Of a stretch of 64,000 nt of DNA, positions 25,826 through 61,846 are shown piece by piece; the first letter of the stretch is position 1; every line of letters begins with the position of its first letter. Below the pieces are notes generated by a model. It ran no database searches, was not told where the DNA came from, and was given only the letters and a program-made list of their open reading frames with translations. This stretch comes from Metellina segmentata. Lineage: Eukaryota; Arthropoda; Arachnida; Araneae; Tetragnathidae. The stretch spans positions 121,722,557-121,786,556 of the forward strand of contig OX375879.1 in assembly GCA_947359465.1 (NCBI GenBank), written 5' to 3'. Made by a program: the position numbers and the translations under genes.

Positions 25826-27106
25826 TGGAAAATCTAAATTCAACTTCTCCTTCAGTGGAGCAACTATGTATAAAAACAAATGAAAACAATATATGTGAAG
25901 AAAAATTTTTTATCATCAAAAGTAACACAGGAAATCTTAAAAATATATCTGCAATCTTACTCCATAAAACTATACTGGGAATGGTAGGAGAGACTAAAAA
26001 CATAAAAAAAAACCCTAGCAGGAGATGTACTTGTTGAAGTTCTAAATAGAACACAGGCATTAAACATCCAAAAAATTAAATCTGTCGGTTCAATAGAGGT
26101 GACTGTTACACCCCACAAAACCTTAAATTCATCAAGAGGTGTAATTTCAGAATCCGATTTAGTACATGACACCGAACAAGACATCCTAGAAACCCTGTCC
26201 AACCAATCTGTAAATAATGTAAAAAGAATCCTTATTTCAAGAAATGGTCAAAGAATACCCACCAAACATTTAATATTAACTTTCAATACACCGATTATAC
26301 CAAAACACGTAAAAATAGCGTATATGAATTGCCCAGTTCGACCTTTCATACCAAACCCAGTTCGTTACTTTAAATGTCAGAGATTCGGCCACTCTTTCCT
26401 TGCTTGCCGTGGGAAAGAAACCTGCGCAAAATGCTGTAGTACAGAACACAAGACTGATGTCTGTACTACATCCTCCCTTTGCTGTGTTAACTGCAAAGGT
26501 GACCATCCAGCTTTTGCCAGGTCTTGCCCTAAATTTCAAACCGAGAAAGAAATCCAGACAGTAAAAGTTCAGCAAAACATTTCATTTCCGGAGGCACGAA
26601 AAATTGTAAATGATCGCACCCCAAAACCTGGTATTTCTTACTCTTCAATAGTAAAAAAACTTTCAAAACTAACGGAACTCAAACCGATGTAACTATTTTT
26701 AAGCCCAACATAAAACCCAACATCTGCCCAACATAAAACTTCAATGAACCAACCTATAACGCCTCTTTTTTCTAAAGCATCAGCTACAACCTCATCAAAT
26801 ACAAAACAGATAAAGCAACCAAATCGATCTATAAATACTTCCTTAAAAAGAGCCATATTATCTGTGTGTGAACAAAGTAATATTAAAATAGCTCTCTCTA
26901 AAAATACTTCTCAAACCTCTCTTCAACCTGACGTTTCCTCCAGAAATAAGTTAACTAATCCTTCTACGAGTGACCTTATTAATCTTTACCACACTGAAAG
27001 CGATATTTCCTCTGTAGAAGATGAGGAATTGGACACTTCGCCAATCAAGCCCAAAAAGGATCCGCGGCAAGACAAACATCGTCCTAGGACGAGAAATAAC
27101 AAGTAA
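25826..27106 (+). pseudogene. LINE ORF1: RNA-binding protein with CCHC knuckles
   Basis: The start ATG at 25826 opens a typical N-terminus (FFIIKSNTGNLKNISAILL). A frameshift occurs in an A run near 26010. The main block 26099-26692 then carries VTVTPHKTLNSSRGVI, an RNA-recognition-like fold, and three zinc knuckles: CQRFGHSFLAC, CAKCCSTEHKTDVC and CVNCKGDHPAFARSC. Next comes NISFPEARKIV. A stop at 26690 and a frame change separate the last part (26744-27106, Ser/Thr/Asn-rich with an acidic end, SDISSVEDEELD). In Jockey-type elements ORF1 binds the element RNA. Confidence 0.85.
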
Positions 27107-27136
27107 TTTTTTTCTTTTCTTTTATATTTTATTTTT

Positions 27137-30100
27137 ATGGCTTCCTTTCTTTCCTGGAACTGCCGGGGTTTTCGTAACAGATGTGATGATGTAAAAGACA
27201 TCATAAACAAACATAAGCCAGCTGCAATCGCCTTCCAGGAGACCTATCTAAAAAACAATGATACCACCAACATTCGTCATTACACTATATTTAGAAAAGA
27301 TTACAATGATGGCCAAAGAGCATGTGGAGGTGTTTGTTTACTTATCTCCCATGACTTACCAGTAACTCAAATTAACCTCAAAACAAATCTCCAATCTGTT
27401 GCTGTAAGACTTCATATCAATACTTTAATAACAATATGCAATTTATATCTACCTCCTAATACCCATATCGCCACATTTGACTTAAATAATTTGATAGATC
27501 AACTACCGCAACCATTCATCATACTTGGTGACCTAAATGGCCATCATATTCTCTGGGGCAGTTCAGACATTAATCGTAGAGGCAAACATATCGAAAAATT
27601 AAAAACAGACAATGATTTATGCATCATGAATAACGGCCAACCTACTTACTTTCACTCACCTTCACTTACTTACCATTCAATAGATCTGGCAATTTTCACT
27701 CCATCAATTTTACGATTTTGGACTTTTTCTGTGGATCCTTACCTTTACAATAGTGACCATTATCCTATAAAAGTAAAATATGCAGGCCTATACCAACCTC
27801 CCTCTGACAGCCAACCTCACTATATATTTGAAACTGCTAACTGGCCACTTTTTACTAGCCTTGCTGACATTACTAACACGGTAGAATATGATGATATCGA
27901 AGAAGTTACTAATAAAATAACAGACATAATCATAGCTAGTGATGACGCCTCAATAAAAAAGTAAGAAATGCGCCTAAAAAACAAAAGAAACCTTGGTGGA
28001 ATGAGTAATGTAGCGATGCCTATCGGAAGCAAAGAAAGCCTGAAATATCTTCAATAGATATCCAACAAGAGAAAACTTTATTATTTACAAAAAAACAAAA
28101 GCGGTATTTCGAAAAATACAAAGACGTAGTCGAAGGGATTCTTGGATTAATTATGTAAATAGTATAAATAGTAAAACCACAAGTAAACAATTGTGGAACA
28201 GGATTAAAAGGATTTCCGGTGTTTACCCCAATAGACAAATTCCTATTCTTGAACATAATAATCAAATAAAATCGGCACCCAAAGACATAGCAAACACAAT
28301 TGCTTCATGCCTTTCCGAAATATCCAGCTCCAATAACTACTCTGAAAGTTTAAAAAAAATTAAAATTGCATCTGAAAAGAATAAAGTTAATTTTACTTCA
28401 AGCCGCATATTATCTTATAATTGTAATTTTACCTTTTCTGAATTGACAAAGGCTTTATCCTTAGTTCACAAATCAACTCCCGGCCCAGATAATATTAGTT
28501 ACATCATGCTCAAACATCTCTCAAAAAGTTCTCTAAATAACCTCCTGAAATTTTATAACAGAATTTGGAACGAGCACACTTTTCCGCAGTCATGGAGATA
28601 TGCTACCATAATACCCATCCTTAAACCGAATAAAGACCCCGAGAACCCTTCGAACTACCGTCCAATAGCCCTGACAAGCTGCTTATGCAGAATTCTAGAA
28701 AAGATGGTCAACGCGCGGTTAATTCATATTTTAGAAAAAGACAAATGTCTCTCTCCACTTCAAAGTGGTTTCCGTAAAGGTCGATCCACTGTTGACAATT
28801 TGGTCGCTCTCGAGACTGAAATTAGAAATGCTTTTGTACAAAATAAACATTTCGTCTCGATTTTCTTCGATATCGAAAAAGCGTACGACCGAACATGGAG
28901 ATATGGAATTTTAAAGGACATTTTTAACAATAATATAAGAGGTAATCTGCCTATTTTTATTCAAAATTTTTTAGAAAAAAGATATTTTAAAGTAAGGATT
29001 GGATCGATTTTCTCAGATGTTTTTATTCAAGAGGAGGGACTACCACAAGGCAGTGTTTTAAGTGTTACTTTATTTATTTTAAAAATTAACAATATTGTTT
29101 CTCAATTGCCTCCATCTGTAAAAGGTCTTATTTACGTTGACGATCTGCAAATTTCATGCGCAGTTAAAGACATTCGTTTAATTGAAAGACAACTTCAACA
29201 GGCCGTTAACAAAATCACACATTGGACTAATGGTTTAAAATGGTTTCAGTTTCTCACCTTCCAAAACCGCGTGTGTTCATTTTTGTAAAAACGAAATCTT
29301 CACCTTGACCCTGAAATATTTTTCAAAGATATTTTAATTAATGTTGTGGACAGTATAAAATTTTTAGGAATAATATTTGACAAGAAATTGACTTTTCAAC
29401 CGCATATTTTAAATCTACGCAAACGTTGCGAAAAGGCCCTCAACAAATTAAGAGTTTTATCTAAGTTATCATGGGGATCTGATCGAGCTTGTCTTTTAAA
29501 AATATATAGAGCCCTAATACGATCAAAATTGGATTACGGCTGCGTGGTGTATGGTTCAGCGAGAAAATCTGCTCTTCAAACTCTGAACACTGTCCACCAC
29601 ACAGCTTTGCGTTTATGTTCTGGTGCTTTCAGAACTTCACCCATAAGCAGCTTATATGTAGACTCGTATGAACCTTCCCTGGACTTCAGGCGACAGTTGT
29701 TGTCCCTGGTGTACTATTTTAGAATAACCTCAACCTCTCATCACCCATTGCATACTATTCATCACAGTCCATATTTAAAACGCCTCTATCAAGCTAAAAC
29801 ATCCTTCATTCCTACATTCCACTTAAGAATACTAGATTTGACGAACGGATCCGAAATTTCATCACTTGACGTCACCCAGAAAAAACTTTATTATTTCTCT
29901 CCTTGGTTTAATCATGATTTTGAATTTCAAAACCCTTTCCAAGATTTTTATAAAGCAGATACCTCTGATATTATTTACAAACAACTCTTTCTAAAGCATT
30001 TAGAAAAATACTCTAATTTTATACATATTTATACGGACGGGTCTAAAAGGGCAAACTATGTTGGAGCTACGTTCACTATTAATGATTCCCTTCACAGTTT

Positions 30101-30715
30101 TAAACTTCATTCTTCATGTTCTGTTTTTACCGCTGAAATAATGGCCATCTATAAAGCACTAGAAAATATATCTGATCATTGTCATAAAAAATATATCATT
30201 TTCACAGATTCATTAAGTGTTTTACAGTCATTGAAACATCCTGATCATGACAGTCATCCCATTGTTTTAGAGTCATTAAAAAGAATTTATCATCTTTCAT
30301 CCAAAAATTTTAACTTGATATTTTGTTGGATTCCATCTCATGTTGGGATAGCAGGAAATGAGACTGTCGACAAAGCCGCCAAATCGGCCGTAAATAACAT
30401 TGACCATAGCATTCCTTATCGCGACTTAAAATCATTCATTTACAAATTTTTAGAAACAAAATAGCAGAACGAATGGAATGAACAAACCGAGAACAAACTT
30501 CACGGTGTTAAACCAATTATAACTCAATGGCAGTCACCACCTTTAAGAAGACAGCAGGTAGTACTAACACGTCTCCGTATTGGACATGCTCGTATAACAC
30601 ATAGACACATCCTCCTCGGAGAAGATCATCCCATTTGTAACTACTGCATTTGCCCACTAACAGCAAAACACATTTTAATAGAATGTTCTCATTTTAATAG
30701 TCAATGACTTAAACA
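27137..30715 (+). pseudogene. LINE ORF2: endonuclease, reverse transcriptase, RNase H
   Basis: 27137-27964 is an APE-type endonuclease with all motifs present (SWNCRG, FQETYL, GDLNGHH, SIDLAIF, SDHYPI). It ends at a stop, and about 220 nt with frame changes follow. 28191-29288 is the reverse transcriptase: YRPIALTSCLCRILEK, SGFRKGRSTVDN, FFDIEKAYDRTW, GLPQGSVLS and YVDDLQIS (active-site DD kept, usually YADD). After a second break 29346-30464 holds the thumb region (IKFLGIIFDKKLTF) and an RNase H domain: IYTDGSKR, FTAEIMAIYKAL, FTDSLSVLQSL and IPSHVGIAGNETVDKAAK. A last frame gives a Cys-rich tail near 30630-30690. RNase H with this RT places it in the Jockey/I superfamily. Confidence 0.87.
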
Positions 30716-37830: not shown

Positions 37831-38029
37831 AGTGGAATAAATTAGTGGCAAAAAGTGGATAGTTTAAGTTTGGTGCTAAAGGATGTAGTTGATTCGAGAT
37901 GGATGGACCCCTCATGGGAACGAATACACAGTCTCACGAAGGGCCTACTTCGCCCCTCTCGAGGTTTCTTTTCGATGTAAAACATTTTGTCACTTTCAAC
38001 TCAAATTTATAGCATGCTTCATCTCATCA

Positions 38030-38825
38030 CTCATTGACTGACCCTTTTGCAGAATCCTCGCAATTGATCGCGTCTATATACAAAATAGATTTACAACTTA
38101 TTTGGGGCATAAAAAAAAACCACCTACCTTTTACAAAAGCAAGTTTTGAAACAGTGCAGTGGCTCTCAATGGAGTCGGGGCACCGTGAAACACGTTTCAA
38201 GATGCTGGGAGTGACTTCTTGTATCCTTTGAGTAATAGCAATTTTCAGATCACTTATTGTTTGGTGAATATCTTCATTAATTCTGTTCTTTAAATATGCC
38301 CACAGAAAAAAGTTATGGATGTTCAGATCAGGGGAACTAGGTGGCCCAAGGTTTCTTGAGAAGAGTCGATCGCATTAATAAGATCGCAATACCATCGGTA
38401 TTAATAAAGCCGCTTCTCATTGTCCAGTGGCTTTAGCTCCGGCAACATTTTTACACGATAAGCACGAAAATGCAAAGCTCTTAAAGCCTTATGTATCGAT
38501 CCCTGTGATGTGCCCATTTGTTGCGACAAACGCCTCACGGATTGATGAGAGGATTGCAATATTTTCCGTTGAGTTTCTTGCACAAAGTGTGGTGTAACGA
38601 CTTTCGGACTCCTGTGTTTTGTGTTCCACCGAACCTGTCTCATGAAATCGCGGAACAAGTTGATATAGCGTATCATTACTCGGTATTGCATCATTTCTGT
38701 GGCCAAAATTTTTTACATCTTTCATGTGATTTACATTCAAAATAATCCTCAAACAGCGCAATTCTCTGAATGCGTGATAAACTCGTCTTGCAATGAAGAA
38801 CAAAAGAACGTGGAACTTAATTATC
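38030..38825 (-). pseudogene. Tc1/mariner-type transposase relic with an HTH N-terminus
   Basis: Minus strand, broken frames. 38800-38600: AFRELRCLRIILN and LVPRFHETGSVEHK, a helix-turn-helix start. 38600-38410: SSHQSVRRLSQQMGTSQGSI, HKALRALHFRAYRVKMLPEL. 38350-38150 in other frames: PPSSPDLNIHNFFLWAYLKN, then IVQRIQEVTPSILK-like words and a FALVKGR-like end. The segment with the first two catalytic Asp residues is deleted between about 38400 and 38350. The NFF-WAYLK word gives the group. Confidence 0.75.
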
Positions 38826-38923
38826 GCACAACTTAAGCGTGAAGAAAACCAAACGATAAATATTAAAGACTTGATAAAACTATCAGCAGACGATAGAATT
38901 TAATAATTAAAAAAAAAGAACGA

Positions 38924-39246
38924 TTTAACCGTCTCCCTTGGCTAGCTCAGTTTTTTTTTGGGTTTTAGGGAAAACGATTAAAAGAAAGAAGGGCCAGTTT
39001 GAATTTAAATAATAAGGTTTATTTACATAAGTATGGAAAATTAAAATATTGTTACATAGGATCAACTTGATCAAGAGGTTGGAAATATCTCGCATACAAA
39101 ATGGCGAACGCCAGTGAATTAGACAACCACAGTCATCACGAGAGCGGGGAAGAGAAGTGCCTCGTAGCCTCGCTTCAACTAGCAAAAGTACTTGTGGTGC
39201 TCTTGGCGCCATCTCTTGGTAGGAGAATGAAAATATGACTGTCACA
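38924..39246 (-). repeat. 3' LTR of the Toll-carrying Gypsy element
   Basis: Direct repeat of 43156-43477. The two differ in the T/G-run near 38950 and at CAACTAGC versus CAACAAGC. Confidence 0.93.
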
Positions 39247-41983
39247 GACTCCCCCTCTGGTTCCGACGTCTTTCAGACCGTCTCGGTAAGGAACCAGAAG
39301 TTTCAGCTTTTCGTGGCTCTCCACGTTTTTTCAGGGGGTGCACTGGTGTCACACTTTCGTCCTGTGTATACACTTTTAGTGCCGACGTGTGGTATGTTTC
39401 CATAGGTTCATTTGGATTGTCTGGGTTGGCGATTATACGAGTGGGTGATTTCTGTGCGAGTGTGATGCAGGGGCCATCTCTTTTCGGCATAAACTTGGAA
39501 GTTTGCCCTTCTGCAATGTTACTCAAATGGTGAGCGGTGATGTACACTTTGTCTCCAGGTAAGTAATGAGGAGCACTCAGTCGCTTTCTATCACCTCCAT
39601 TATGGCGTCCGACATGTAGCCACCCACTGGCAAGTCCATGTAGTGAAGGCACAGGCGAAAGGTCGTCACGCAACACTCCAGCTCCGGGGTCAGGATCTGT
39701 GTAAGGAAGGCCACATCCTTCTTGCTGTAGGACACGAAGGCGTCGAAGAGCTTGTCCTCGTCGCCGCCGCCTGTGTGAGACGCGCGCCCCTTGCCGCCCT
39801 GGAAGAGGCGGATGCCGTACTTGGCGTAGAGCCAGACGCCCATCTCCTTTCTGTAGACGAAGACGATGATAACGATGAATATCACAACGAAGAGTACAGT
39901 CGCCGCGATGATCAGGACCGGCAGGAGCTCGTTCTAATCGAACTCCAGCCGCATGGCGGTGGCCGTGAAGTTGGTGCACGCAGTGGTGTTGAAGTCGAGT
40001 ATGTAGTGCGTGCTGCTGTGGTTGAAGTTTCACTCTAGGTTCTACAGATCCCGCACGTGGTTCCTCTTGAGGTGCAGAAACTCCCTCAGCTCGCCTATGA
40101 TAAAGCAGTCGCACATCCAGGAGCTGTGTGCGAGCTTGACTTCCTGCAGGCGCGGGTTTACGTTGAGGAGCCACATTTAGTAGTGGACTATGTAGTTGTG
40201 TTCTAAGTGCAGGATCTCTATGTTCTTCCGGTCGATGAAGGTGTGGCTGGACAGGGTCGGGATATCGCTGCCGTACAGGTACAGCTCGGTGACATCCATG
40301 GGGATTTTGCGGGAGACGGCGGTGTGCCGTTTGTTGTTCCTGTTTCACATAAGGGGTAGGGTCTCCCCCTGGTTTGAAGACAGTGTCAAACTTTCCGAGC
40401 AGAGAGCTCATCTTACTTTGCACTGTGTTCAAAGGTGTACCTTCATCATCACGGTGGTAGAAAGAGTTTGCTGTAAAGCTATCAGCAGTCTGTAGTGAAC
40501 CTACATCAAGGTCTTCCTTGAAATAAATTTTGTAATTAGGCTCGTCGCCAAAATACCATCTTTTGTTCTTTAGGTCTAGAACAATACCAGTTTTTTCCAA
40601 AAAGTCGGTACCTAAGAGGGTTCTGTTACCCCTTGCTTCTGGTAGAGCCAGCATATCAATGGACACAGTTCTTCCTTCTATATTAATGGGCACCGTGGCG
40701 GTGAGAGCTTCTACGGTAGATCGACTGCCGTCTGCTAAAGCCATTGTAACTTCAAGTTTTTGGAAATCAACTCCTCGTTTCCGAAGCAGGTTGAACATTA
40801 TTTCACCAGCAATGGAGCGAGTGGCACCAGTATCGGCACAAACTCTTCCATGGATATCTCCTATGCGGATATCTAACAAAGCTGTTGGTGCTGCAGAAAC
40901 ATGGATAGTATACAGAGTTATACTATTGGAACTGAATTCCTCTCTAGGTGTACTGGGCGTACACGATGGACACTTGGCCTTTATGTATCCTGGCTTTCCA
41001 CAGCCATAACAAGTTAAAGTTGATCGATTTTCCATTCTATCAGGTTTGGGCTTATCCGAGAATTTTGTTTTATGTTCTGGATACCTTTTCTGGTTTGGCA
41101 TGAGATGTGATCTGTTATCAGTTACTCTGCGAGAGTGGAAGAGAGGGACATCTCTCTTGATTCGAACTGCATCATAATCATCTAACTTGCTAGTTAATTC
41201 TTCAACATTGTTGAGTTGACTCCATTCGTCTATGAAGTGCTCGCGCACTTCGGGGGGAACTCGACGCTTGATTTGATCCGAGATGATTAATTCCTTCAGC
41301 TGGTCAAAAGTGGAAATATCTAAACCACTGATCCATCCTTGAAAATAGTTCTTGACTTCATATGCAAAGTCTTTCCAGGTAGCAGTAGACAACTTGCAGT
41401 GTTTGGAGAACAGCTGCCTGAATTTCTCAGCTGTAAGTTTGTACCTTTTCAGTAGAAGGCTCTTCACTTTTTCAAAATCCTGGGATACCTCTACTTCTTC
41501 TCTGGCAACGAGCTGTGCTATTTCGTAGGGTAACAGACGCAGTAAATTTGAGGCCCAAAATTCCTTCGGAACGTCTGCGGCCTGAGCTTGGCACTCAAAT
41601 AGGGTTAAATATAAGCTGATATCATTGTCTACTGGATCAAACCTAGGAATCATGGAGAGGAACTCTATTTTCGGACGTGAAGATACATAACCAGTTGAAT
41701 TGAAAGATTCATTTTGAAGTTGCAGTTTTTTCAGTTCGAAGTCCATTTCTTCTTTTCTTATTCGTTCTTCGCTGTCGAGCTGAAGTTTTCTTTGTTCAGT
41801 TTCTTCGATTCTTTGGGTCATAATGGTGTTCAACAATTCTTTCACATAATCCGGCTCATAGTTTGGGCTTGCTAGTATTAAATTCTTTAGATCTATCATC
41901 TTTGAATCCGGAGTGACCTTCTCTCCAACCTCATTGGCGAGAATGATAAGATCTTCCTTACGGGCTTTACCGAGGAACGCCAT
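39242..41983 (-). CDS. gag-pol: Chimeric Gag-protease-(Toll insert)-integrase tail polyprotein, 913 codons, uninterrupted
   Basis: The start is the Met at 41983, the conserved MAFLGKARKEDL start of this gag type (the frame is open further up only through the leader repeat). Residues 55-95 form a charged coiled coil. Residues about 105-300 are the capsid region, with a SCAN-like part (FRQLFSKHCK, VKNYFQGWISGLD, DQIKRRVPPEVREHF). At about 324 lies a zinc knuckle, CYGCGKPGYIKAKC, in which the usual His is Tyr. At about 381 is the retropepsin active site CADTGATRS. From about residue 544 to 799 the frame passes through Toll-derived DNA in a frame that is not the Toll frame, giving an Arg/His/Pro/Gln-rich stretch. 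The end is a Gypsy integrase tail (LPGDKVYITAHHLSN, KFMPKRDGP, YHTSALKVY). Confidence 0.88.
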   Translation of the reverse strand: MAFLGKARKEDLIILANEVGEKVTPDSKMIDLKNLILASPNYEPDYVKELLNTIMTQRIEETEQRKLQLDSEERIRKEEMDFELKKLQLQNESFNSTGYVSSRPKIEFLSMIPRFDPVDNDISLYLTLFECQAQAADVPKEFWASNLLRLLPYEIAQLVAREEVEVSQDFEKVKSLLLKRYKLTAEKFRQLFSKHCKLSTATWKDFAYEVKNYFQGWISGLDISTFDQLKELIISDQIKRRVPPEVREHFIDEWSQLNNVEELTSKLDDYDAVRIKRDVPLFHSRRVTDNRSHLMPNQKRYPEHKTKFSDKPKPDRMENRSTLTCYGCGKPGYIKAKCPSCTPSTPREEFSSNSITLYTIHVSAAPTALLDIRIGDIHGRVCADTGATRSIAGEIMFNLLRKRGVDFQKLEVTMALADGSRSTVEALTATVPINIEGRTVSIDMLALPEARGNRTLLGTDFLEKTGIVLDLKNKRWYFGDEPNYKIYFKEDLDVGSLQTADSFTANSFYHRDDEGTPLNTVQSKMSSLLGKFDTVFKPGGDPTPYVKQEQQTAHRRLPQNPHGCHRAVPVRQRYPDPVQPHLHRPEEHRDPALRTQLHSPLLNVAPQRKPAPAGSQARTQLLDVRLLYHRRAEGVSAPQEEPRAGSVEPRVKLQPQQHALHTRLQHHCVHQLHGHRHAAGVRLERAPAGPDHRGDCTLRCDIHRYHRLRLQKGDGRLALRQVRHPPLPGRQGARVSHRRRRRGQALRRLRVLQQEGCGLPYTDPDPGAGVLRDDLSPVPSLHGLASGWLHVGRHNGGDRKRLSAPHYLPGDKVYITAHHLSNIAEGQTSKFMPKRDGPCITLAQKSPTRIIANPDNPNEPMETYHTSALKVYTQDESVTPVHPLKKRGEPRKAETSGSLPRRSERRRNQRGSL
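39580..40350 (-). pseudogene. Captured host Toll receptor fragment (LRR flank, transmembrane segment, partial TIR)
   Basis: In its own frame (different from the gag-pol frame): an LRR N-flank and repeat (HTAVSRKIPMDVTELYLYGS, HTFIDRKNIEILHLEHNYI), an LRR C-flank (WMCDCFIIGELREFLHLKRN, then CTNFTATAM), a hydrophobic segment (LLPVLIIAATVLFVVIFIVI, about 39925-39866) and a juxtamembrane YAKYGIRLF. The first half of a TIR domain follows, with box 1 (LFDAFVSYSKKD) and box 2 (RLCLHYMDLPVGGYM); box 3 (FW) is missing. Four stops interrupt the Toll frame (codons near 40180, 40055, 40045 and 39937). It is intronless and visibly GC-richer than its surroundings. The closest relatives by memory are the Toll-6/Toll-7/Tollo group of arthropods. 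Confidence 0.93.
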
Positions 41984-42119
41984 GTTTGAACTTTTCTTCA
42001 CAATCGGGTGCAAGAAAGTTCGTAGCACTGGAGTGGACGGATTCACGGTAGTACACACAGACAGTGCCGACGATACGTGGAGCAATGGAATCGACCGATT
42101 CTCGATAGCGCGCACACAC

Positions 42120-42590
42120 ACACACAGAGATGCAATGAGATTTGAATCGACTGATTCAAGGTAGCACACACAGATGCGATGAGATTTGAATCGGCTGATT
42201 CAAGATAGCACACGCACAGTTACGATGAGATTTGAATCGACTGATTCAAGATAGCACACACAGATGCGATGAGATTTGAATCGACTGATTCAAGATAGCA
42301 CACACAGATGCGATGAGATTTGAATCGACTGATTCAAGATAGCACACACAGATGCGATGAGATTTGAATCGACTGATTCAAGATAGCACACACAGATGCG
42401 ATGAGATTTGAATCGACTGATTCCCGATAGCACACGCACAGATGCGATGAGATTTGAATCGACTGATTCCCGATAGCACACGCACAGATGCGATGAGATT
42501 TGAATCGACTGATTCAAGGTAGCACACACAGATGCGATGAGATTTGAATCGACTGATTCAAGATAGCACACACAGATTAATATGTATCAC
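42120..42590 (-). repeat. Leader minisatellite of the Toll-carrying element, unit 44-46 bp
   Basis: About ten units between the 5' LTR region and the gag start. Starts of GATGCGATGAG at 42262, 42307, 42351, 42395, 42441, 42487 and 42531 give 44- and 46-bp spacings. Each unit holds a hairpin, TTGAATC-GACT-GATTCAA. Confidence 0.92.
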
Positions 42591-43155
42591 CCACTTCAAA
42601 TGTAAAGTTTTACTTTGAAGTACACTTTCATTTTCGTTGAAGGCGGATGATGAACACATTATGACACACAATAAACCAAATCTTAGAATTTACGAAAATT
42701 GCACAATAACTAATAATGCTTTCAGACAAGAACACAAGACAAGCACACAAGAACAGTGCTATTGAATAACATGATTAATTTCACCACTAATCATCAATCA
42801 TAAGAACAGTTAAATCGAATAATATTCCAGTTACACTATGTCTATAAAATTGCTTTACTTAATGAAAATGTGTAGCATGAAACTACGATCAACAAATGAA
42901 AACTTCGGGTTTCAAAAGTTCCAAACTAGAGTTTTAACACCTTTAGTCTAAGACTAACATGCGAATACATTTTTACGCAATGACACGTGCGACCAAAGAC
43001 TTCCAAAATAAAGTATTTATGATTAAATTTTTGACAAACTATATCACTATATTTCAAAAGGAAATTCGCTATTATCATTTTAGAACCTGGATGCAAAGTT
43101 ATACTTATCCAAAATCAGAATGCAAGAGGATTCGGCCTCGAGTTCGGGCGCCAGT
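42591..43155 (-). other. 5' leader of the Toll-carrying element
   Basis: AT-rich, no ORF of note. Contains the primer binding site at its upper end (TGGCGCCCGAAC on the minus strand). Confidence 0.6.
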
Positions 43156-43477
43156 TTTAACCGTCTCCCTTGGCTAGCTCAGTTTTTTTTGGGTTTTTGG
43201 GAAAACGATTAAAAGAAAGAAGGGCCAGTTTGAATTTAAATAATAAGGTTTATTTACATAAGTATGGAAAATTAAAATATTGTTACATAGGATCAACTTG
43301 ATCAAGAGGTTGGAAATATCTCGCATACAAAATGGCGAACGCCAGTGAATTAGACAACCACAGTCATCACGAGAGCGGGGAAGAGAAGTGCCTCGTAGCC
43401 TCGCTTCAACAAGCAAAAGTACTTGTGGTGCTCTTGGCGCCATCTCTTGGTAGGAGAATGAAAATATGACTGTCACA
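43156..43477 (-). repeat. 5' LTR of the Toll-carrying Gypsy element
   Basis: Direct repeat of 38924-39246. The promoter would lie here, reading towards lower coordinates. The outer boundary is set by the ACGA duplication. Confidence 0.93.
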
Positions 43478-43794
43478 ACGAGCAATATTTTTTTAAAGTT
43501 GGAGTACGGGAACTTTCAGGACATCCTGTTTTTGCGCGTTAAGTTTGAAATGTGAAATATATTTTTAACACAATAACCGAAATGATGAACAAAGAGAACA
43601 AAAAGTGAACACAATCGAAAAAGAGCGGACAAAAAAAGATCCGACTTAAAAAAGAGAGTGAAAAAAAGAGATCCGAGAGAAAAAAAGCGTTCCCTTTAAA
43701 AGAGCAACCTTAGCCACCAGGGCTCCACACAACAGAGGAGTGTGAAACAATTGGTGTATTGCGTTAAAAAAATATTCGTGAAGGAAGTGTTCGT

Positions 43795-48659: not shown

Positions 48660-48920
48660 TGTAAGGAGTTTCGTAGACGGAATAAGGTAGCTGGACTAGA
48701 CCGTCAAGTCTTTATTTGCTTGGACGACACAAACACCAATTTACAAGACCGTGCACCACTTGGACGTAAAAACATGACAACATATTAACAGAAAGACATT
48801 TTAAATTTTGTTGAATCCAACGTCATCAGCCGTCCCATCCGCAGAACCGCACTCGTTGTTCTTTTTCTGCTTCCGCAAAGCATTCTGGGTGCTCATAATG
48901 ACGTGGGTCATGACGTTACA
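48660..48920 (-). repeat. 3' LTR of the nested element
   Basis: Identical by eye to 54963-55223 over 261 bp. Confidence 0.95.
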
Positions 48921-49175: not shown

Positions 49176-52100
49176 TCATTCAGGATCGTCAAGAGTGGGG
49201 ATCCTGCTTAATCCGTCTGCATTTTTGTGCAGAGAACCACTTCTATGTTTAACCTCAAAGTCATAAGGTTGTAAGGCCAAAGACCAACGCATAAGACGGG
49301 CATTTGTGCCTGCGTTGCTATTCAACCAAACCAGTGGATTATGATCAGTCACAATTGTAAATGATTTACCGTCGAGGTAACATTTGAGTTTTTTCACAGC
49401 AAAGATAATAGCAGCACATTCTTTCTCACTCACACTGTACCGTTTCTCCACGTTTGAAAATTTCTTGCTGAGGTAAACAATAGGATGTTCGGAACCATCT
49501 TCAGAATTCTGAGATAAAACGGCTCCCATGCCCAAGTCAGACGCATCAGTTTGTAAGATGAATGGGCGATTATAGTCGGGTGCATACAGGATAGGAAAGT
49601 TAGAAAGAGCTTTCTTAAGTGTGACAAAAGCCACGTCACATTCCTTAGTCCAACTTATAGTTCCCTTTCGAATCTTACCCTTCAAAGTGTCTGTCAAAGG
49701 AGATGCAATCGAAGAAAACATAGGGATATAACGGCTGTAATATCCCGCTAGTCCTAAAAAGGCTCTCACATCAGATTTAGTTCTAGGAGGAGAAAAGTTT
49801 TTAATGGCTTCAATTTTTATGTCCATCGGCTTTCTACATCCTTCACCCACGATATGTCCAAGATACTGAACTTGACCTTGTGCAAACTTGCACTTTGAAG
49901 GTTTAATGGTCAAACCAGCCTTTTGTATTCTTTGTAAGACAGCATCCACTTGTTTTAGATGGTCTTGAAAAGAATGAGAGAAGATCGCAATGTCATCGAG
50001 ATACGGCACAGCGAACTCCCCGCACCCTTCCAAAAGTTGCGAAACCATTTTGCTAAATTCGTATGGGGCATTTTTCAATCCGAACGGCATTCTCAAAGGA
50101 CGATAGGTGCCAAAGTTTGTGATAAATGCTGCGAGTCTTTGGGCATTTTCACTCAGCGGGATTTGCCAATACCCTCTTGAGAGATCTAAAATAGTTATAA
50201 ATTTTGCACTTGATACCGTCTCAATTCGTTCTTCTATATTTGGAAGAGGAAAGTACTTTGTCTTAGTTATTTTATTTAGGTTTCTATAATCGATGCAAGG
50301 TCTGGGATCTTTTCCAGGCGCCTCAACTAAGATCATCGGAGAAGTGTAATCCGAAAAACCAACTTCTATAATTTTCAATGCCAACATTTTCTGAATTTCG
50401 GACTTCAGGATGTCGTTCTGTCTTGCCGAATTTCGATATGGTTTCGATAGAAGTGGCTGATCACTGCTTAGTTCGATATCGTGAGTAACAATATCGGTCT
50501 TTCCAGGAACATTAGAAAAACATTTCTCGTATTTACACACGAGTTGCTTCAATTGAATGAGTTGATCTTCCTCCAACTTATTTCCTAGAAGATTTTCTTG
50601 AAACATCTCATTTAAGTCTAAGATGTTTGGATTTGAGTCCACATAAGGAATTTCCATCTCGACTTCCACATTTTCATTAGTTTCATTCAAAAGAAAGTTA
50701 ATTTGTTCGGGTCTCCTATAGTAAGGTTTCAACATATTGACGTGGTATACTTTAGATGTGGATTTCTCACCAGGCATTTCTACCACATAATTGGTTTCAG
50801 ACAGTTGTCGCAGAACTTTACCAGGACCTGTCCAGTGAGGGCTTAACTTATTTGCCTTAAAGGTAGAAAAAATTAGGACCAGGTCTCCTTCGTGAAATTC
50901 TCTTTTAACTGCTCTCTTATCATACCAAGTTTTATTCTTTTGTTGGGATTCTTCCATGTTTGTTGTGGCAAGCTCTTGACACCGCTTCATTCGATTAATC
51001 AAAGAGAAAACATACTCGGTTACAGGTTCTCCATCGTCTTCCGAGTCCATCCACTTCTCGTATAACAGCGTTAAAGGTGTTCTTAAATTCTTTCCATGAA
51101 CAAGTTCAGCAGGAGTGAACCCAGTGCTTTCATGAGAAACCGTTCTCAAAGCAAACAGAGCAGGATAAATTGATTTCTCCCAATCTGATCCAGCTTCCAA
51201 GCATAGAATCTTCAAAATCCTTTTAACTGTCCTGTGAAATCTTTCCACCGGATTACTTTGTGGATGATAAATTGAACTATGAACTACTTTTACTCCAAAT
51301 TTCTCAAGGAATGTTGTAGTAAGTTCACTCGTAAAAGAACTTCCTTGATCTAACTGTAGAACTTTTGGAAACCCCATCCTACTAAAAATCTGCATCAATG
51401 CGTCCACCACAGATGTAGAAGTTATGTCTTCGACAGGAACGGCATCAGGATATTTAGATGCTAGACACATGGCAGTAATTAGATAACGTTTACCACTTGA
51501 AGTAACTGGCAAGGGACCACATGCGTCTATATTAATCTTCGAGAAAACTTCTTGTATCACAGGAACTAACTTCATAGGAGCTTTCTTTTTATCGCTTGGT
51601 TTTCCAACCCGTTGACATTTATCACAAGTTCGGACGAATTCTTCTATTTCTTTGTAGCATTGAGGCCAGAAGAAATGTCTCGATAGAACGTCTTTAGTTT
51701 TCGTCACACCTAGATGACCAGAAGTTCCCTCGTGACACAAAGCTTTTAAGTCATTTCGATATATCTTAGGAATCACCAATAACGGTCGATTCACTCCTAA
51801 CTTATCAATCTTCTTTTTGATGAGGAGTTCATTTGATAGGATTTCAAATTCTGCTTTATCTTCAGGGCTTTTCTTTTGTAGTTTCTCGATTATGTGTTTC
51901 AAATCTTTACATTCCTTTTGCTGAGATGCAAAGGTTTTAGAATCCACCTTTAAGAGAGATAACCCTTCAAACTCTTCGCTGGGAGGAAAAGAAAATAGAT
52001 CATCTTCTTCAATCAGGATTTCTTCCGACAAGGATTTGTCATCTTGAACACCTTTTTCGTGTCCGTGATTTTCTTCTTCCACTAGACGTTTCTGAGCTCT

Positions 52101-53525
52101 AGTTTGGATAGCGTTGATTTGATGAGGAACTGGATCTTCCTTCATCTTCTCCAGGAGAGCCGCAGTTCGGTTTCCGAGCAAGTATCTCCCTTTGTCTACT
52201 TGACTCCACACAACTGCTGCTTTCGTAATTACATGTCCGAATTCTCCCTTCAACTCTACTTCTGCCAGTGGCAAGCAAACAGGAGCATCATCTAAAGGTT
52301 GTTGCACCCATATATTTTCGCCAGTGAGCATCTCGGGTTTTATACGGTTTCTGCACACTACGTCAATACTGGTCCCAGTATCACGGAGAATCGGCATCTT
52401 GAATCCGTTCACTTCCCCAATGTAGGTGTAAGGGGACAAGAAGATATCTTCTTCCTTACCAATCAGACGATTTACAGGGGCGGAACTTCCTTCTTTTCTT
52501 TTTAGCAACGGACAACAGGGTCTTAAGTGTTCTGTTGAGTTACACATATAGCAACGGAGTTTTCTTCGTTTTTCAAATGCTTCAGTACTTTTCATCGTCT
52601 TTTCAGCTTCAATTTTCTCTTGCTTCAGTTCCTTAGGATAATTTTTCGGTTCTGAGTGAAATTTATTTCTCCAATTAGGAACTGTTTTTTCTTTTGGATT
52701 GAAAGCTTTCTTCTTGGTCAGCATTCGAACGCTGTCATATCCATCCAACTTCTCAGCCAGAACCTCTGGACATTTGATTTGTGCCCATTCGTCAATGAAA
52801 TGTTCTTTCATCTCTGCAGGAACACGGCGTTTTATCTGATCTGTGATAATCAGATCACACAATTGTGCAAAGGTCTCTACTTCCAATCCCCTGATCCATT
52901 CTTGAAAGTAGTTTCTGATTTCGTACAGGTAATCAGTCCACGACCCTTCGACATTCTTGTTATGTTGAGTAAACATCTGACGAAATTTTTCGGCAGTCAA
53001 TTTATATCGTTTCAGCAAAATTTTCTTCACCTGCTCGTAATCATCACATACCTCTTCCGACTCCCTTGCTATCAATTGAGCCATATCTTGAGGTAGCAAC
53101 CCGATCAGATGAGATACCCAGTATTCTTGGGAAATGTCAACTCTTTTTGCTTGACGTTCAAAAAGGACGAGATATAAACTAATATCCCCATTCTTTGGAT
53201 CAAATTTCTGCATAAGATGATGCAATTCCAGTTTAGATTTTGAGTTGGTTCCACCTGCTGTTGGTTCAGGTCTGTTTTGTACCTCTATCCTCATTTTCTC
53301 AAGAGTAAATTCTTCTTCCCTCTTTCTTTTCTCAAGGTCCTCTTTTTCAGTCCTGGTTGCAACAATAGTACTTAAGAGTTCTCTAACAAAATTTACTTCG
53401 AAATCCTCATGAGTTTCTATAGCCTTCTTGAGATCGATTATCTTTGCCGAAGCCCTAATCTCTATACCCATTTCATCAGCTAAAATCTGAAGATCGGCCT
53501 TTCGTGCTGACCCTAAAAATGCCAT
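49176..53525 (-). CDS. gag-pol: Gag-protease-integrase-RT-RNase H polyprotein (1449 aa)
   Basis: The start is MAFLGSARKADL at 53525. Residues 1-100: N-terminal part with a coiled coil. About 110-290: capsid with a SCAN-like segment (FRQMFTQHNK, IRNYFQEWIRGLEV, DQIKRRVPAEMKEHF). About 325: knuckle CYMCNSTEHLRPCC. About 380: protease ILRDTGTSIDVV. About 590-950: integrase, with the zinc part (HLGVTKT, CDKCQRVGK), the catalytic residues in NIDACGPL, LQLDQGSSF and NPVERFHRT, and a C-terminal GPGKVLRQL module. About 1020-1250: Gypsy RT with LDLSRGYWQIPL, FGLKNAPYEFSK and YLDD at about 1176. About 1320-1440: RNase H with LQTDASDLGMGAVL, VSEKECAAI and TDHNPLVW, ending NADGLSRIP. RT is of the Ty3 type although integrase stands before it. 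Confidence 0.96.
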   Translation of the reverse strand: MAFLGSARKADLQILADEMGIEIRASAKIIDLKKAIETHEDFEVNFVRELLSTIVATRTEKEDLEKRKREEEFTLEKMRIEVQNRPEPTAGGTNSKSKLELHHLMQKFDPKNGDISLYLVLFERQAKRVDISQEYWVSHLIGLLPQDMAQLIARESEEVCDDYEQVKKILLKRYKLTAEKFRQMFTQHNKNVEGSWTDYLYEIRNYFQEWIRGLEVETFAQLCDLIITDQIKRRVPAEMKEHFIDEWAQIKCPEVLAEKLDGYDSVRMLTKKKAFNPKEKTVPNWRNKFHSEPKNYPKELKQEKIEAEKTMKSTEAFEKRRKLRCYMCNSTEHLRPCCPLLKRKEGSSAPVNRLIGKEEDIFLSPYTYIGEVNGFKMPILRDTGTSIDVVCRNRIKPEMLTGENIWVQQPLDDAPVCLPLAEVELKGEFGHVITKAAVVWSQVDKGRYLLGNRTAALLEKMKEDPVPHQINAIQTRAQKRLVEEENHGHEKGVQDDKSLSEEILIEEDDLFSFPPSEEFEGLSLLKVDSKTFASQQKECKDLKHIIEKLQKKSPEDKAEFEILSNELLIKKKIDKLGVNRPLLVIPKIYRNDLKALCHEGTSGHLGVTKTKDVLSRHFFWPQCYKEIEEFVRTCDKCQRVGKPSDKKKAPMKLVPVIQEVFSKINIDACGPLPVTSSGKRYLITAMCLASKYPDAVPVEDITSTSVVDALMQIFSRMGFPKVLQLDQGSSFTSELTTTFLEKFGVKVVHSSIYHPQSNPVERFHRTVKRILKILCLEAGSDWEKSIYPALFALRTVSHESTGFTPAELVHGKNLRTPLTLLYEKWMDSEDDGEPVTEYVFSLINRMKRCQELATTNMEESQQKNKTWYDKRAVKREFHEGDLVLIFSTFKANKLSPHWTGPGKVLRQLSETNYVVEMPGEKSTSKVYHVNMLKPYYRRPEQINFLLNETNENVEVEMEIPYVDSNPNILDLNEMFQENLLGNKLEEDQLIQLKQLVCKYEKCFSNVPGKTDIVTHDIELSSDQPLLSKPYRNSARQNDILKSEIQKMLALKIIEVGFSDYTSPMILVEAPGKDPRPCIDYRNLNKITKTKYFPLPNIEERIETVSSAKFITILDLSRGYWQIPLSENAQRLAAFITNFGTYRPLRMPFGLKNAPYEFSKMVSQLLEGCGEFAVPYLDDIAIFSHSFQDHLKQVDAVLQRIQKAGLTIKPSKCKFAQGQVQYLGHIVGEGCRKPMDIKIEAIKNFSPPRTKSDVRAFLGLAGYYSRYIPMFSSIASPLTDTLKGKIRKGTISWTKECDVAFVTLKKALSNFPILYAPDYNRPFILQTDASDLGMGAVLSQNSEDGSEHPIVYLSKKFSNVEKRYSVSEKECAAIIFAVKKLKCYLDGKSFTIVTDHNPLVWLNSNAGTNARLMRWSLALQPYDFEVKHRSGSLHKNADGLSRIPTLDDPE

Positions 53526-54962
53526 CTTCTCGAACTTTATAACCTCACTAATTTTAATTACGAAACAATTTTGAATTAAATTTTCTAAAATGCAAGCAAC
53601 GAATACACACTCTTAACGATTGTATAAACACGTGCACACACACAAAAATGTGTATAAATTGAATTATGATTAAATATATAAAAGTGAGCAATCGCGAAAT
53701 AATTAGGATTTATATCATATGCACAATGAAAAGAATAACTTTCTCTTTTTAAGCTTGAAACCATAAAGAGGCAATGAACATGTGACCACAAAAATAAATT
53801 CCCTACTTTTCTTCTGACATAGGAAAGAAAAAGAAAATATATACATATACCAATGTATTCGAGGAACAGAAAACACTATTTCATTTTTATCCATCGACAG
53901 CACCATAAACAAAATTCTACTCCAAAAATAAAACAAATTTTCATCTAACAGGAAGTAATCTGTATTTTGTTTTTACCAAGCTATAAATAAACACAATGGC
54001 GCGCAAAAACGAATTCCACACTTCAAATTCTTAACAGCTGTGAGCAATCAGTAACGATTCAGAACCAAAACTAATGTACCTAAATAGTTGAAACACATTT
54101 GATACAAGTTTTACACACTTCTAGTAAAGATTGAACTTTGCAAGAACAAATTTTTCAGAAAGAAATATAATTCAATGAAACGGGGATGCTTCATAAAAAA
54201 TATATTAATAGTTGAATGTTCCAAACTCAATATTCTCAGAATTTTGTACGAGACACTACATAAATTCAGCCATGAATTCTACCAAAACTCAGAAAAATAT
54301 ATGAACATATCAATACGATTAATATTTAACATATCAAGGTCCGATATAGTTATACAATCACATTCATTTCTAAACTTAGTTAAGTATGCCAAACCGAAAC
54401 AGAACTGTGCTTCGCATAACAAAATTTTAACAGTTAACCAGAAATGAATAATGCTTAGTATTTACTTTTAATCCAAGAAAATAATGGATACAAATTCCAA
54501 AGCTAATTTGTTATTATTCCCGAAATATTAACACTATTTCAACAACAAATTATACATACAGCCTAACGGAAATTAAAATCAATGTACTTTTAACAAATGA
54601 ATTCCTAAGCTAATTTGTTATTATTCCCGAAATATTAAGAACACTATTTCAATAACAAATTTTACAGCCTACCGGAAATTATAACGATTTCAGTTCAACA
54701 ATAATCACAATCAATGTACTTTTAACAAGTGGATTCCTAAGCTAATCTGTTGGTATACCCGAAATATAATGAACAATATTTCACACAACAGATATAAACA
54801 AGCTTACCGGAAGTCCAACTTGGTTTAATACACCATTATCATTAAACTATAGGACAGGTACTGATCCGTACTAAACAATTTATCTGGTAAGGGGTACTTA
54901 CCCTGAACTTCTGTTTAACTATTGTGAGACGTATCCAACCGTATGCCACCATTCTGCAGGCC
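53526..54962 (-). other. Leader of the nested element with a three-copy repeat
   Basis: AT-rich, no long ORF. Three copies of a block with AAGCTAATTTGTTATTATTC and CCGAAATATTAA lie at about 54490, 54605 and 54735 (spacing 110-130 bp). The primer binding site is near 54951-54934 on the minus strand. Confidence 0.7.
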
Positions 54963-55223
54963 TGTAAGGAGTTTCGTAGACGGAATAAGGTAGCTGGACT
55001 AGACCGTCAAGTCTTTATTTGCTTGGACGACACAAACACCAATTTACAAGACCGTGCACCACTTGGACGTAAAAACATGACAACATATTAACAGAAAGAC
55101 ATTTTAAATTTTGTTGAATCCAACGTCATCAGCCGTCCCATCCGCAGAACCGCACTCGTTGTTCTTTTTCTGCTTCCGCAAAGCATTCTGGGTGCTCATA
55201 ATGACGTGGGTCATGACGTTACA
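54963..55223 (-). repeat. 5' LTR of the nested element
   Basis: Identical by eye to 48660-48920. Transcription would start here and read towards lower coordinates. Confidence 0.95.
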
Positions 55224-61200: not shown

Positions 61201-61846
61201 TCATCCAGTACTTCCCAGCCGCACTGATTCGCTAGCTCTGGGTGAGACACCAGAGTAATGTCCGGCCAGCCCACACTCATGTTGTTGTTAAAGGTTGGAG
61301 GTGATTTGGGATCGTTGAGGACTTGTAATTTATGTTCATGTATGAACTCCAGTAGATCCGACCCTCTGGAGTTTTGATGGTCGTACCCCCAGTTGATGCT
61401 ATGAGCATTTAAATCACAGCCAATTATGAAGTATTCATTTCCGACTTTTCGAACATTTTCGCTGATTTCTTGAAGGGTTACTTAAGGTCCTCTTGAGGTG
61501 ATGAGTAGGCCGAGAAGAACATTAGAGGCCCGTTTATATTTTCAACTTTAGCCACCACTGTGTTATCGGTAATCGCAATAATGACTGGATGCAAATTTCT
61601 ATTCGTTATTACAATTCCTGCTTTTTTATTCTTCGATATCCAGTGAATCCATGAACAGGGGATTCCAATCATTTTATTTTCTTTCACATATGGCTCTTGT
61701 ACCAGAATCACATCTGGTTTGTATTTTTCTGCCATAATCGAGAGTTGGCTAGTTGGATCTCTTGACTGTCTTAGGTTTATTTGGACGAGTGTCAATGTGG
61801 GACGTATTTGCGTTGTTATGAATTGAGTTGACGTGTGGTGTGACAT
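58263..61846 (-). pseudogene. LINE ORF2: endonuclease, RT, RNase H
   Basis: 61846-61478: endonuclease start (LVQINLRQSRDPTSQL, VILVQEPYV, GIVITNR). After a one-base shift: GCDLNAHSINWGYDHQNSRG, GWPDITLV and LSDHMYV, so the catalytic set is present. RT at 61280-59193: YRPISLLPTIGKALERLL, FGFKEGSSVDSA, SVDIDGAFDNL, GCPQRSCSGPVLWN and FSDDFAIV (DD kept, with S where A is usual). After the second break: YYTDGSKMEKRVGSAF, AELYGILSAIKAAE, WSDSRAGFLAL and GWIKAHAGHDGYEEADRLAK (RNase H), then a Cys/His tail (CSCGEIGRPLHYITVC). Confidence 0.88.

What the first reader, a model, noticed from the sequence alone, without database searches (positions are those of the whole stretch)
39242..41983. LTR retrotransposon that replaced its RT-integrase core with a host Toll receptor segment
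Seen directly: between a Gypsy protease and a Gypsy integrase tail lie about 770 bp that translate as Toll (LRR flanks, transmembrane segment, TIR boxes 1 and 2). The whole is bounded by near-identical LTRs, a 4-bp target duplication, a primer site and a purine tract. Capture of cellular genes is known for acute retroviruses and plant LTR elements. A Toll receptor in an arthropod Gypsy element is not known to me. Inference: capture via RNA, because the fragment has no intron, although donors of the Toll-6/Tollo type can be intronless too.
Basis: partly seen in the sequence, partly recalled or inferred. Interest (0 to 1): 0.95.

Follow-up and report, generated by a model that had tools for sequence, protein, structure and literature searches.

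The report
Retrotransposon carrying a captured Toll fragment
In an unnamed spider genome, a jumping gene has swapped its own copying enzymes for a piece of a host developmental receptor gene (Tollo), in a form that does not normally make that receptor piece, and still spread to dozens of places, apparently with help from a close relative that kept the enzymes.

Summary
The element fills 38924-43477 (minus strand): near-identical LTRs, 4-bp target duplication, gag-protease, 764 bp from a Toll gene, integrase C-terminus. At least 38 further places in the genome match the Toll piece; in all 20 fetched with flanks, and the window, both junctions are present, and 18 of 18 scorable copies have a perfect 4-bp target duplication.

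The donor is the host Tollo/LongTollA gene (one 1201-codon open frame). The progenitor also survives: RT-bearing siblings, one with 96-98% identical gag-protease. Against both parents, the switch points fall where sibling and donor agree (7 of 7; 11 of 13 bases), as expected of reverse-transcriptase template switching. It replaced 2.36 kb of pol.

The cargo is not a working receptor: cut within TIR, with an LRR deletion, and out of frame with Gag-Pro. Gag-Pro is under purifying selection among copies, so this looks like a gag-protease element moved by siblings' RT/integrase; three recombinant copies indicate that both RNAs met.

Gene capture by LTR elements is known; I found no Toll-carrying one in the open-access listings searched.

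The parts
43478..43481 (.). Target-site duplication, gag side (TCGT read on the minus strand)
   Evidence: identical to 38920-38923
43156..43477 (-). 5' LTR (322 bp)
   Evidence: 2 mismatches and 1 gap against 38924-39246
43142..43153 (-). Primer-binding site TGGCGCCCGAAC, 2 nt after the LTR
   Evidence: sequence; the match to tRNA-Lys is recalled, not tested
42075..42577 (-). 5' leader with 44/46-bp tandem repeats
40361..41983 (-). gag-protease, 541 codons, ATG at 41983; aspartic protease; zinc knuckle by eye
   Evidence: (RVP_2, E 7.5e-4, 19.7 bits against a cut-off of 20.3)
39583..40346 (-). Tollo/LongTollA-derived segment: part of the last LRR block with a 216-bp internal deletion, LRR C-terminal flank, transmembrane helix, TIR to box 2 (domain labels recalled); out of frame with gag-pro
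   Evidence: ends include the two stretches where sibling and donor agree
40340..40346 (-). 5' junction: sibling and donor both read GGAACAC here; the Toll copies printed now read GAAACAG
39583..39595 (-). 3' junction: sibling GGTGATAGAAAGC against donor GGCGATGGAAAGC (11 of 13); the window copy reads as the sibling
39242..39582 (-). Integrase C-terminal tail in the gag-pro frame, to the stop
39249..39258 (-). Polypurine tract AGAGGGGGAG
   Evidence: sequence; same tract before the 3' LTR in 20 of the 21 copies listed, one base changed in L039
38924..39246 (-). 3' LTR (323 bp)
38920..38923 (.). Target-site duplication, other side

Best explanation
A Ty3/Gypsy element of an orb-weaver-like spider packaged host Tollo mRNA together with its own RNA. 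During minus-strand synthesis the reverse transcriptase switched to Tollo RNA inside the integrase coding region and back to element RNA at the very start of RT, replacing 2.36 kb of pol with 0.76 kb of Tollo (inferred from the junctions). The product keeps LTRs, primer site, purine tract, gag and protease, so it can be transcribed, make particles and be packaged (inferred), but has no RT or integrase core (shown for the copies read). RT-bearing siblings with related LTRs and nearly the same gag-pro supply those in trans (inferred; recombinants shown). The Toll piece is mainly a passenger: out of frame with Gag-Pro and evolving close to neutrality, while gag-pro stays under selection (shown for the copies read).
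For: Copies: 38 places besides window and donor. I fetched 20 of the 38 with flanks: in all 20 and the window the Toll query with 13-14 bases of element on each side aligns (L038 only from base 3 to 790 of 791). Target duplications perfect in 18 of 18 scorable copies (14 different words), 3 of the 21 dropped (L022 interrupted 5' LTR, L039 cut 3' LTR, L040 no 5' LTR found); LTR mismatch 0-3.8%, none in 8 of 18. Donor: one gene at C8:91124 kb, open frame 1201 codons, 91% protein identity, next Toll 55% (DNA 91-93%); 92% to Nephila pilipes Tollo over 541 residues. Progenitor: L046, L047, L048 carry RT/IN sequence and no Toll (of L048 only the C-terminal half was fetched); 3' LTR 96% (L046) and 89% (L047); gag-pro of L046 96.1-98.3% to six Toll copies, the 502-bp piece of L047 94%; 16 of 40 scored places match the RT-IN core at 97-100% over its length (585 candidates), and two matches at 97% lie in stop-free 1506-codon frames. 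Junctions: sibling and donor agree 7 of 7 and 11 of 13; random-breakpoint frequencies 4.2e-4 and 6.5e-5. Selection: shared gag-pro variants dN/dS-like 0.43 (0 of 3000 shuffles), singletons 0.93; gag-pro stop-free and in frame in 16 of 20, L040 dropped as partial; mean pairwise difference gag-pro 2.0%, Toll 4.2%, IN tail 5.2%. Recombinants: L042 and L043 share one RT-to-Toll junction at two loci; L051 runs gag-pro, Toll, sibling IN.
Against: No expression, packaging or mobility data. Donor is intronless, so RNA origin rests on the junctions, and DNA end-joining with filler also leaves short homology (recalled). At the 5' junction the Toll copies printed (window, L027, L036) differ at three bases from a seamless join of sibling and donor, so the 7-base agreement is between the parents, not visible unchanged in the product. 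The Toll frame shows a weak excess of silent changes among shared variants (0.68, P 0.018, one of three frames tested), and there is no fixed donor difference in columns 347-525 against 33 elsewhere (region picked after seeing the gap); a pure passenger predicts neither. Stop gains in the gag-pro frame across the Toll piece are fewer than expected (4 against 9.6, P 0.027; 4 against 8.6, P 0.053).
Confidence: 0.78

Rival explanations
1. DNA-level capture: a double-strand break in an element copy was repaired with a filler patch from the Tollo gene by homology-guided end joining; the composite then amplified by ordinary retrotransposition.
For: Donor intronless; short agreement at both ends is also typical of end joining (recalled); an LRR-to-LRR deletion (216 bp) can arise in DNA.
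Against: Same-strand replacement with agreement at both ends of a 2.4-kb loss needs two joins; joins between members of this very family are seen at two other junctions, though these too could have been made in DNA.
Confidence: 0.16
2. The shifted-frame translation of the Toll segment has become a useful C-terminal extension of Gag-Pro (overprinting).
For: Frame open across the Toll segment in 15 of 20 copies, L038 dropped; 9 of 20 have one frame of at least 880 codons from the gag ATG into the integrase tail, L040 dropped; stop gains 4 against 9.6 expected (P 0.027).
Against: No amino-acid constraint in that frame among shared variants (1.32); the depletion of stops is P 0.053 when polarised by majority; four of the twenty copies break it by indels and one by a stop; no protein among the 235 stored shares it except its own translation.
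Confidence: 0.1
3. The Toll piece is expressed as a truncated membrane-TIR decoy that interferes with Toll signalling.
For: The 118-codon membrane-TIR stretch is free of stops in 28 of the 32 element matches that span it (counted from the list; further copies are split by indels); one recombinant copy, L042, has it at the end of an 888-codon frame that contains gag.
Against: In six of the seven copies printed the Toll frame can be read past a stop at the 5' junction only, and that stop stands in all seven; each of 20 copies has at least one stop in that frame; TIR cut after box 2; a database search with the piece, limited to proteins of similar length, had 4 candidates and no hit; stop gains in the Toll frame at the neutral level (6 against 5.95).
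Confidence: 0.03
4. Assembly artefact or chance juxtaposition.
For: None found; long reads could not be checked.
Against: Matches on contigs C1 to C13, independent flanks and 14 different target duplications among 18 copies.
Confidence: 0.005

Closest known systems
LTR-mediated retroposition in animals and Bs1 of maize (as told in the review PMC5408686, passages read; the primary papers not read)
   Same: host mRNA copied into an LTR element by template switching at short similarities, ending up between LTRs
   Different: here the composite became a multicopy family, with progenitor and donor both identifiable in the same genome and gag-pro still under selection; intron loss cannot be shown
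NLR immune-receptor genes inside LTR elements of pepper and other plants (PMC5664825, passages)
   Same: an LRR receptor gene carried and multiplied by LTR elements, about 72% of the pepper cases inside non-autonomous ones
   Different: plants; those elements mostly have no gag or pol, and the receptor genes are under purifying selection; here a truncated, out-of-frame fragment in an animal element that keeps gag-pro
TR-GAG elements (PMC8704663, passages)
   Same: non-autonomous LTR elements encoding Gag, thought to be mobilised with proteins from a relative
   Different: described there from plants; this one also keeps protease and integrase tail and has a host gene piece in place of the pol core
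Pxyfem, partial PxyMasc retrocopies joined to retrotransposon sequence in the diamondback moth (PMC9674220, passages)
   Same: arthropod; partial host cDNA joined to retrotransposon sequence
   Different: antisense, W-linked arrays making silencing RNAs against the parent gene; no small-RNA data here and the Toll piece is in sense
Acute transforming retroviruses (recalled)
   Same: loss of pol in exchange for a host signalling gene; helper needed
   Different: no in-frame Gag-host fusion in the standard copies; cargo not functional

Membership tests
Ty3/Gypsy LTR retrotransposon (autonomous) | LTRs, 4-bp target duplication, primer site, purine tract | tested here: met
   (tRNA partner of the primer site not tested)
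Ty3/Gypsy LTR retrotransposon (autonomous) | gag and aspartic protease of Gypsy type | tested here: met
   75-77% to three Araneus ventricosus Gypsy polyproteins
Ty3/Gypsy LTR retrotransposon (autonomous) | encodes RT, RNase H and integrase core | tested here: not met
   replaced by Toll in the 21 copies aligned; present in siblings L046-L048. So it is a non-autonomous derivative, not an autonomous member
TR-GAG-like non-autonomous elements | LTR element with intact Gag frame and no RT/IN core | tested here: met
   gag-pro intact in 16 of 20
TR-GAG-like non-autonomous elements | transposition shown | not testable with these tools
   only inferred from copies with LTRs lacking mismatches (8 of 18)
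LTR-mediated retroposition (host mRNA capture) | host exonic sequence inside the LTRs with an identifiable parent gene | tested here: met
LTR-mediated retroposition (host mRNA capture) | short similarity between element and mRNA at both switch points | tested here: met
   at the 5' end the product itself has since changed
LTR-mediated retroposition (host mRNA capture) | introns removed relative to the parent | tested here: inconclusive
   parent is one open frame of 1201 codons
Oncogene-type transduction (acute retroviruses) | in-frame, functional host gene product | tested here: not met
   Toll frame shifted and with stops; exception by recombination in L042

The most novel reading that the evidence does not exclude
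The Toll piece protects or empowers the element at RNA level: because each of 20 copies tested shares an exact run of 48-91 bp with Tollo, small RNAs made against the element would also hit a developmental gene, so the host cannot silence it freely (a hostage insert), or the element tunes Tollo expression. The lack of fixed differences in columns 347-525 would then mark the stretch kept identical to the donor.
Probability: 0.06. Interest if true: 0.92.

Novelty: new variant of a known kind. Interest (0 to 1): 0.63.

Why it matters
All partners of a gene capture are present in one genome: donor gene, RT-bearing progenitor line, captured product, and later recombinants of the two. That makes the steps (packaging of host mRNA, switch points, trans-mobilisation, fate of cargo) readable from sequence, in an animal. 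It also shows that an element can lose RT and integrase core, keep gag-protease under selection, and spread to at least 39 places, against 16 close RT-bearing copies among the places scored (different queries, both lower bounds). Long exact identity with a developmental gene makes cross-silencing directly testable.

Tried and rejected
Misassembly or lone copy: rejected. Immune-type Toll: rejected, best relatives are Tollo/LongTollA. Intron loss as proof of RNA capture: rejected, donor is one open frame. In-frame Toll decoy: rejected for the standard copies. The neighbouring intact 1478-codon Gypsy (49176-53612) as helper: unlikely, its gag is 43% and its RT 37% identical to those of this family. 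Same insert in other species' proteins: no listed hit covers more than 63% of the query, i.e. gag-pro (120 of 180 hits listed), no hit to the shifted frame among 235 stored proteins other than its own translation, none to the 118-aa piece (4 candidates, proteins of similar length only); genomes of other spiders cannot be searched here. Pfam: only the protease hit. Rfam at gathering threshold: nothing in the window. Literature, listings only: searches (20 of 113 listed; 20 of 29; 0 found; 8 of 8; 12 of 19; 15 of 68; 15 of 16) show no title about a Toll-carrying retrotransposon; the library is open-access only. Trees of the copies were made but nothing is concluded from them.

Names and motifs recalled rather than tested: tRNA-Lys primer, Toll domain labels, IN-before-RT (Gmr1-like) order by eye, Bs1 beyond what the review says, retrovirus transduction, end joining as a source of short homology.
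Full report
What is there. The element runs from 43477 down to 38924 on the minus strand: LTRs of 322 and 323 bp with 2 mismatches and 1 gap, target duplication TCGT, primer site two bases after the 5' LTR, tandem-repeat leader, gag-protease of 541 codons, a Toll-derived stretch, an integrase C-terminal tail and a purine tract. The interval of the finding is the 913-codon frame from the gag ATG. The Toll stretch is in another frame than gag-pro; read in the gag frame it is stop-free in the window copy, read as Toll it has five stops, one of them at the 5' junction.

It is a family. A DNA search of the own genome (1.665 Gb, 173 contigs, unnamed) with the Toll stretch gave 43 matches at 40 places on contigs C1 to C13: the window copy, 38 others (some partial) and the donor gene (40 of 48 candidates scored). 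In the window and all 20 the Toll query, which carries 13-14 bases of element on either side, aligns over its length (L038 from base 3 to 790 of 791). Target duplications are perfect in 18 of 18 copies with two scorable LTRs, with 14 different words; L022, L039 and L040 were dropped for damaged or missing LTRs. LTR mismatch is 0-3.8%, 8 of 18 have none. There are two length classes, about 791 bp (window, L021-L024, L026; L025 has its own deletions) and about 806 bp.

Donor. A protein search found one gene, C8:91124 kb, with a 1201-codon open frame and 91% identity; the next Toll genes are at 55% or less, four of them also in single frames of 1213-1254 codons. The part fetched is 92% identical to Nephila pilipes Tollo over 541 residues and belongs with Parasteatoda LongTollA. 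Long Toll genes act in embryonic axis elongation (PMC6013529, passages). The captured part runs from the LRR block next to the membrane to just after TIR box 2, minus 72 codons between two LRRs (domain labels recalled).

Progenitor. Of 40 scored places with the integrase tail (65 candidates), 37 lie next to Toll by comparison, and 3 do not. Those three (L046-L048) are colinear with the Gypsy polyprotein P0060 through RT and integrase and have no Toll (of L048 only the C-terminal half was fetched, of L047 only the end of gag-pro). The two whose 3' LTR I fetched have it at 96% (L046) and 89% (L047) to the window LTR; gag-pro of L046 is 96.1-98.3% identical to six Toll copies tested, the 502-bp piece of L047 94%. 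A search with the RT-IN core gave 16 whole-length matches at 97-100% among 40 scored of 585 candidates. Two matches at 97% lie in stop-free 1506-codon frames; others have stops or shorter frames. L046 itself is split over three frames.

Junctions. Between sibling and donor, the 5' switch lies at a shared GGAACAC (7 bases) at the start of RT, the 3' switch at a 13-base stretch with 11 matches inside integrase. Random breakpoints between the two sequences give 7 contiguous matches in 4.2e-4 and such a 13-base window in 6.5e-5 of 200,000 draws. Against this: in the copies printed (window, L027, L036) three bases at the 5' junction differ from a seamless join, two of them within the seven, so the agreement is inferred from the parents. 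2361 bp of pol were lost for 981 bp of donor span, less 216 bp. This is what template switching during minus-strand synthesis leaves (mechanism as in the review PMC5408686, passages).

How it lives. Shared variants in gag-pro are depleted in amino-acid changes (dN/dS-like 0.43; 0 of 3000 shuffles as low), singletons are not (0.93), the pattern of genes selected while copies transpose and free afterwards. Gag-pro is intact in 16 of 20 copies (L040 dropped as partial). So the element makes, or lately made, its own Gag-Pro and needs RT and integrase from elsewhere (inference). Recombinants indicate that both RNAs were reverse-transcribed together: L042 and L043, at two loci, share one junction from sibling RT into Toll (L042 has target duplication AAAC/AAAC by eye and 5 LTR mismatches), and L051 passes from Toll into sibling integrase.

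The cargo. In the Toll frame stop gains are at the neutral level (6 against 5.95). In the gag frame they are fewer than expected (4 against 9.6, P 0.027; with majority polarity 4 against 8.6, P 0.053), and 9 of 20 copies keep one frame of at least 880 codons, but amino-acid changes in that frame are not depleted (1.32 among shared variants). Results that fit a pure passenger poorly: Toll-frame value 0.68 among shared variants (P 0.018, three frames tested), and no fixed difference from the donor in columns 347-525, with normal polymorphism (0:39 against 33:116, P 2.7e-4, region chosen after inspection; the gap of 179 columns exceeds the 95% null of 127). Recapture or conversion from the donor is one possible cause. 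I keep the passenger reading as most likely.

Known or new. Capture of host genes by LTR elements is known in plants and animals (PMC5408686, PMC5664825, passages), Gag-only elements that move are known in plants (PMC8704663, passages), and arthropod retrocopies joined to retrotransposon sequence can acquire silencing roles (PMC9674220, passages). No listing of the seven searches on this question names a Toll-carrying retrotransposon (listings capped, open-access library). I rate it a new variant of a known kind.

Noticed in passing
window 49176-53612 (-), LTRs 48660-48920 and 54963-55223: Uninterrupted 1478-codon Gypsy-type frame with 100% identical 261-bp repeats on either side; RT lies at residues 1044-1133 onward, after what looks by eye like the integrase, i.e. 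IN before RT (Gmr1-like order, recalled).
   Followed up: partly
L044 (C1:9835700-9837900): In one element copy the Toll box 2/integrase junction has become a 144-bp tandem array, 7.8 copies at 98% matches, with open frames of 387 and 453 codons running through it.
   Followed up: partly
L042 (C8:58886200-58891200): Recombinant copy whose 888-codon frame runs from gag through the start of RT, a shifted Toll stretch and then the Toll membrane-TIR part in its own frame.
   Followed up: partly
Toll segment, alignment columns 347-525 (membrane region): No fixed difference between donor and 20 copies although polymorphism is normal; possible recapture or gene conversion.
   Followed up: partly
window 42075-42577 and other copies: Leader of 44/46-bp repeats; it seems to vary in length between copies (element lengths 3781-4919 bp over 18 copies, which also include other indels).
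   Followed up: no
window 26006-30464 and 58263-61481: Long frames that look by eye like non-LTR retrotransposons (endonuclease, RT, RNase H).
   Followed up: no
window 38027-38899 (-): Broken frames resembling a DNA-transposon transposase directly beside the 3' LTR (by eye).
   Followed up: no
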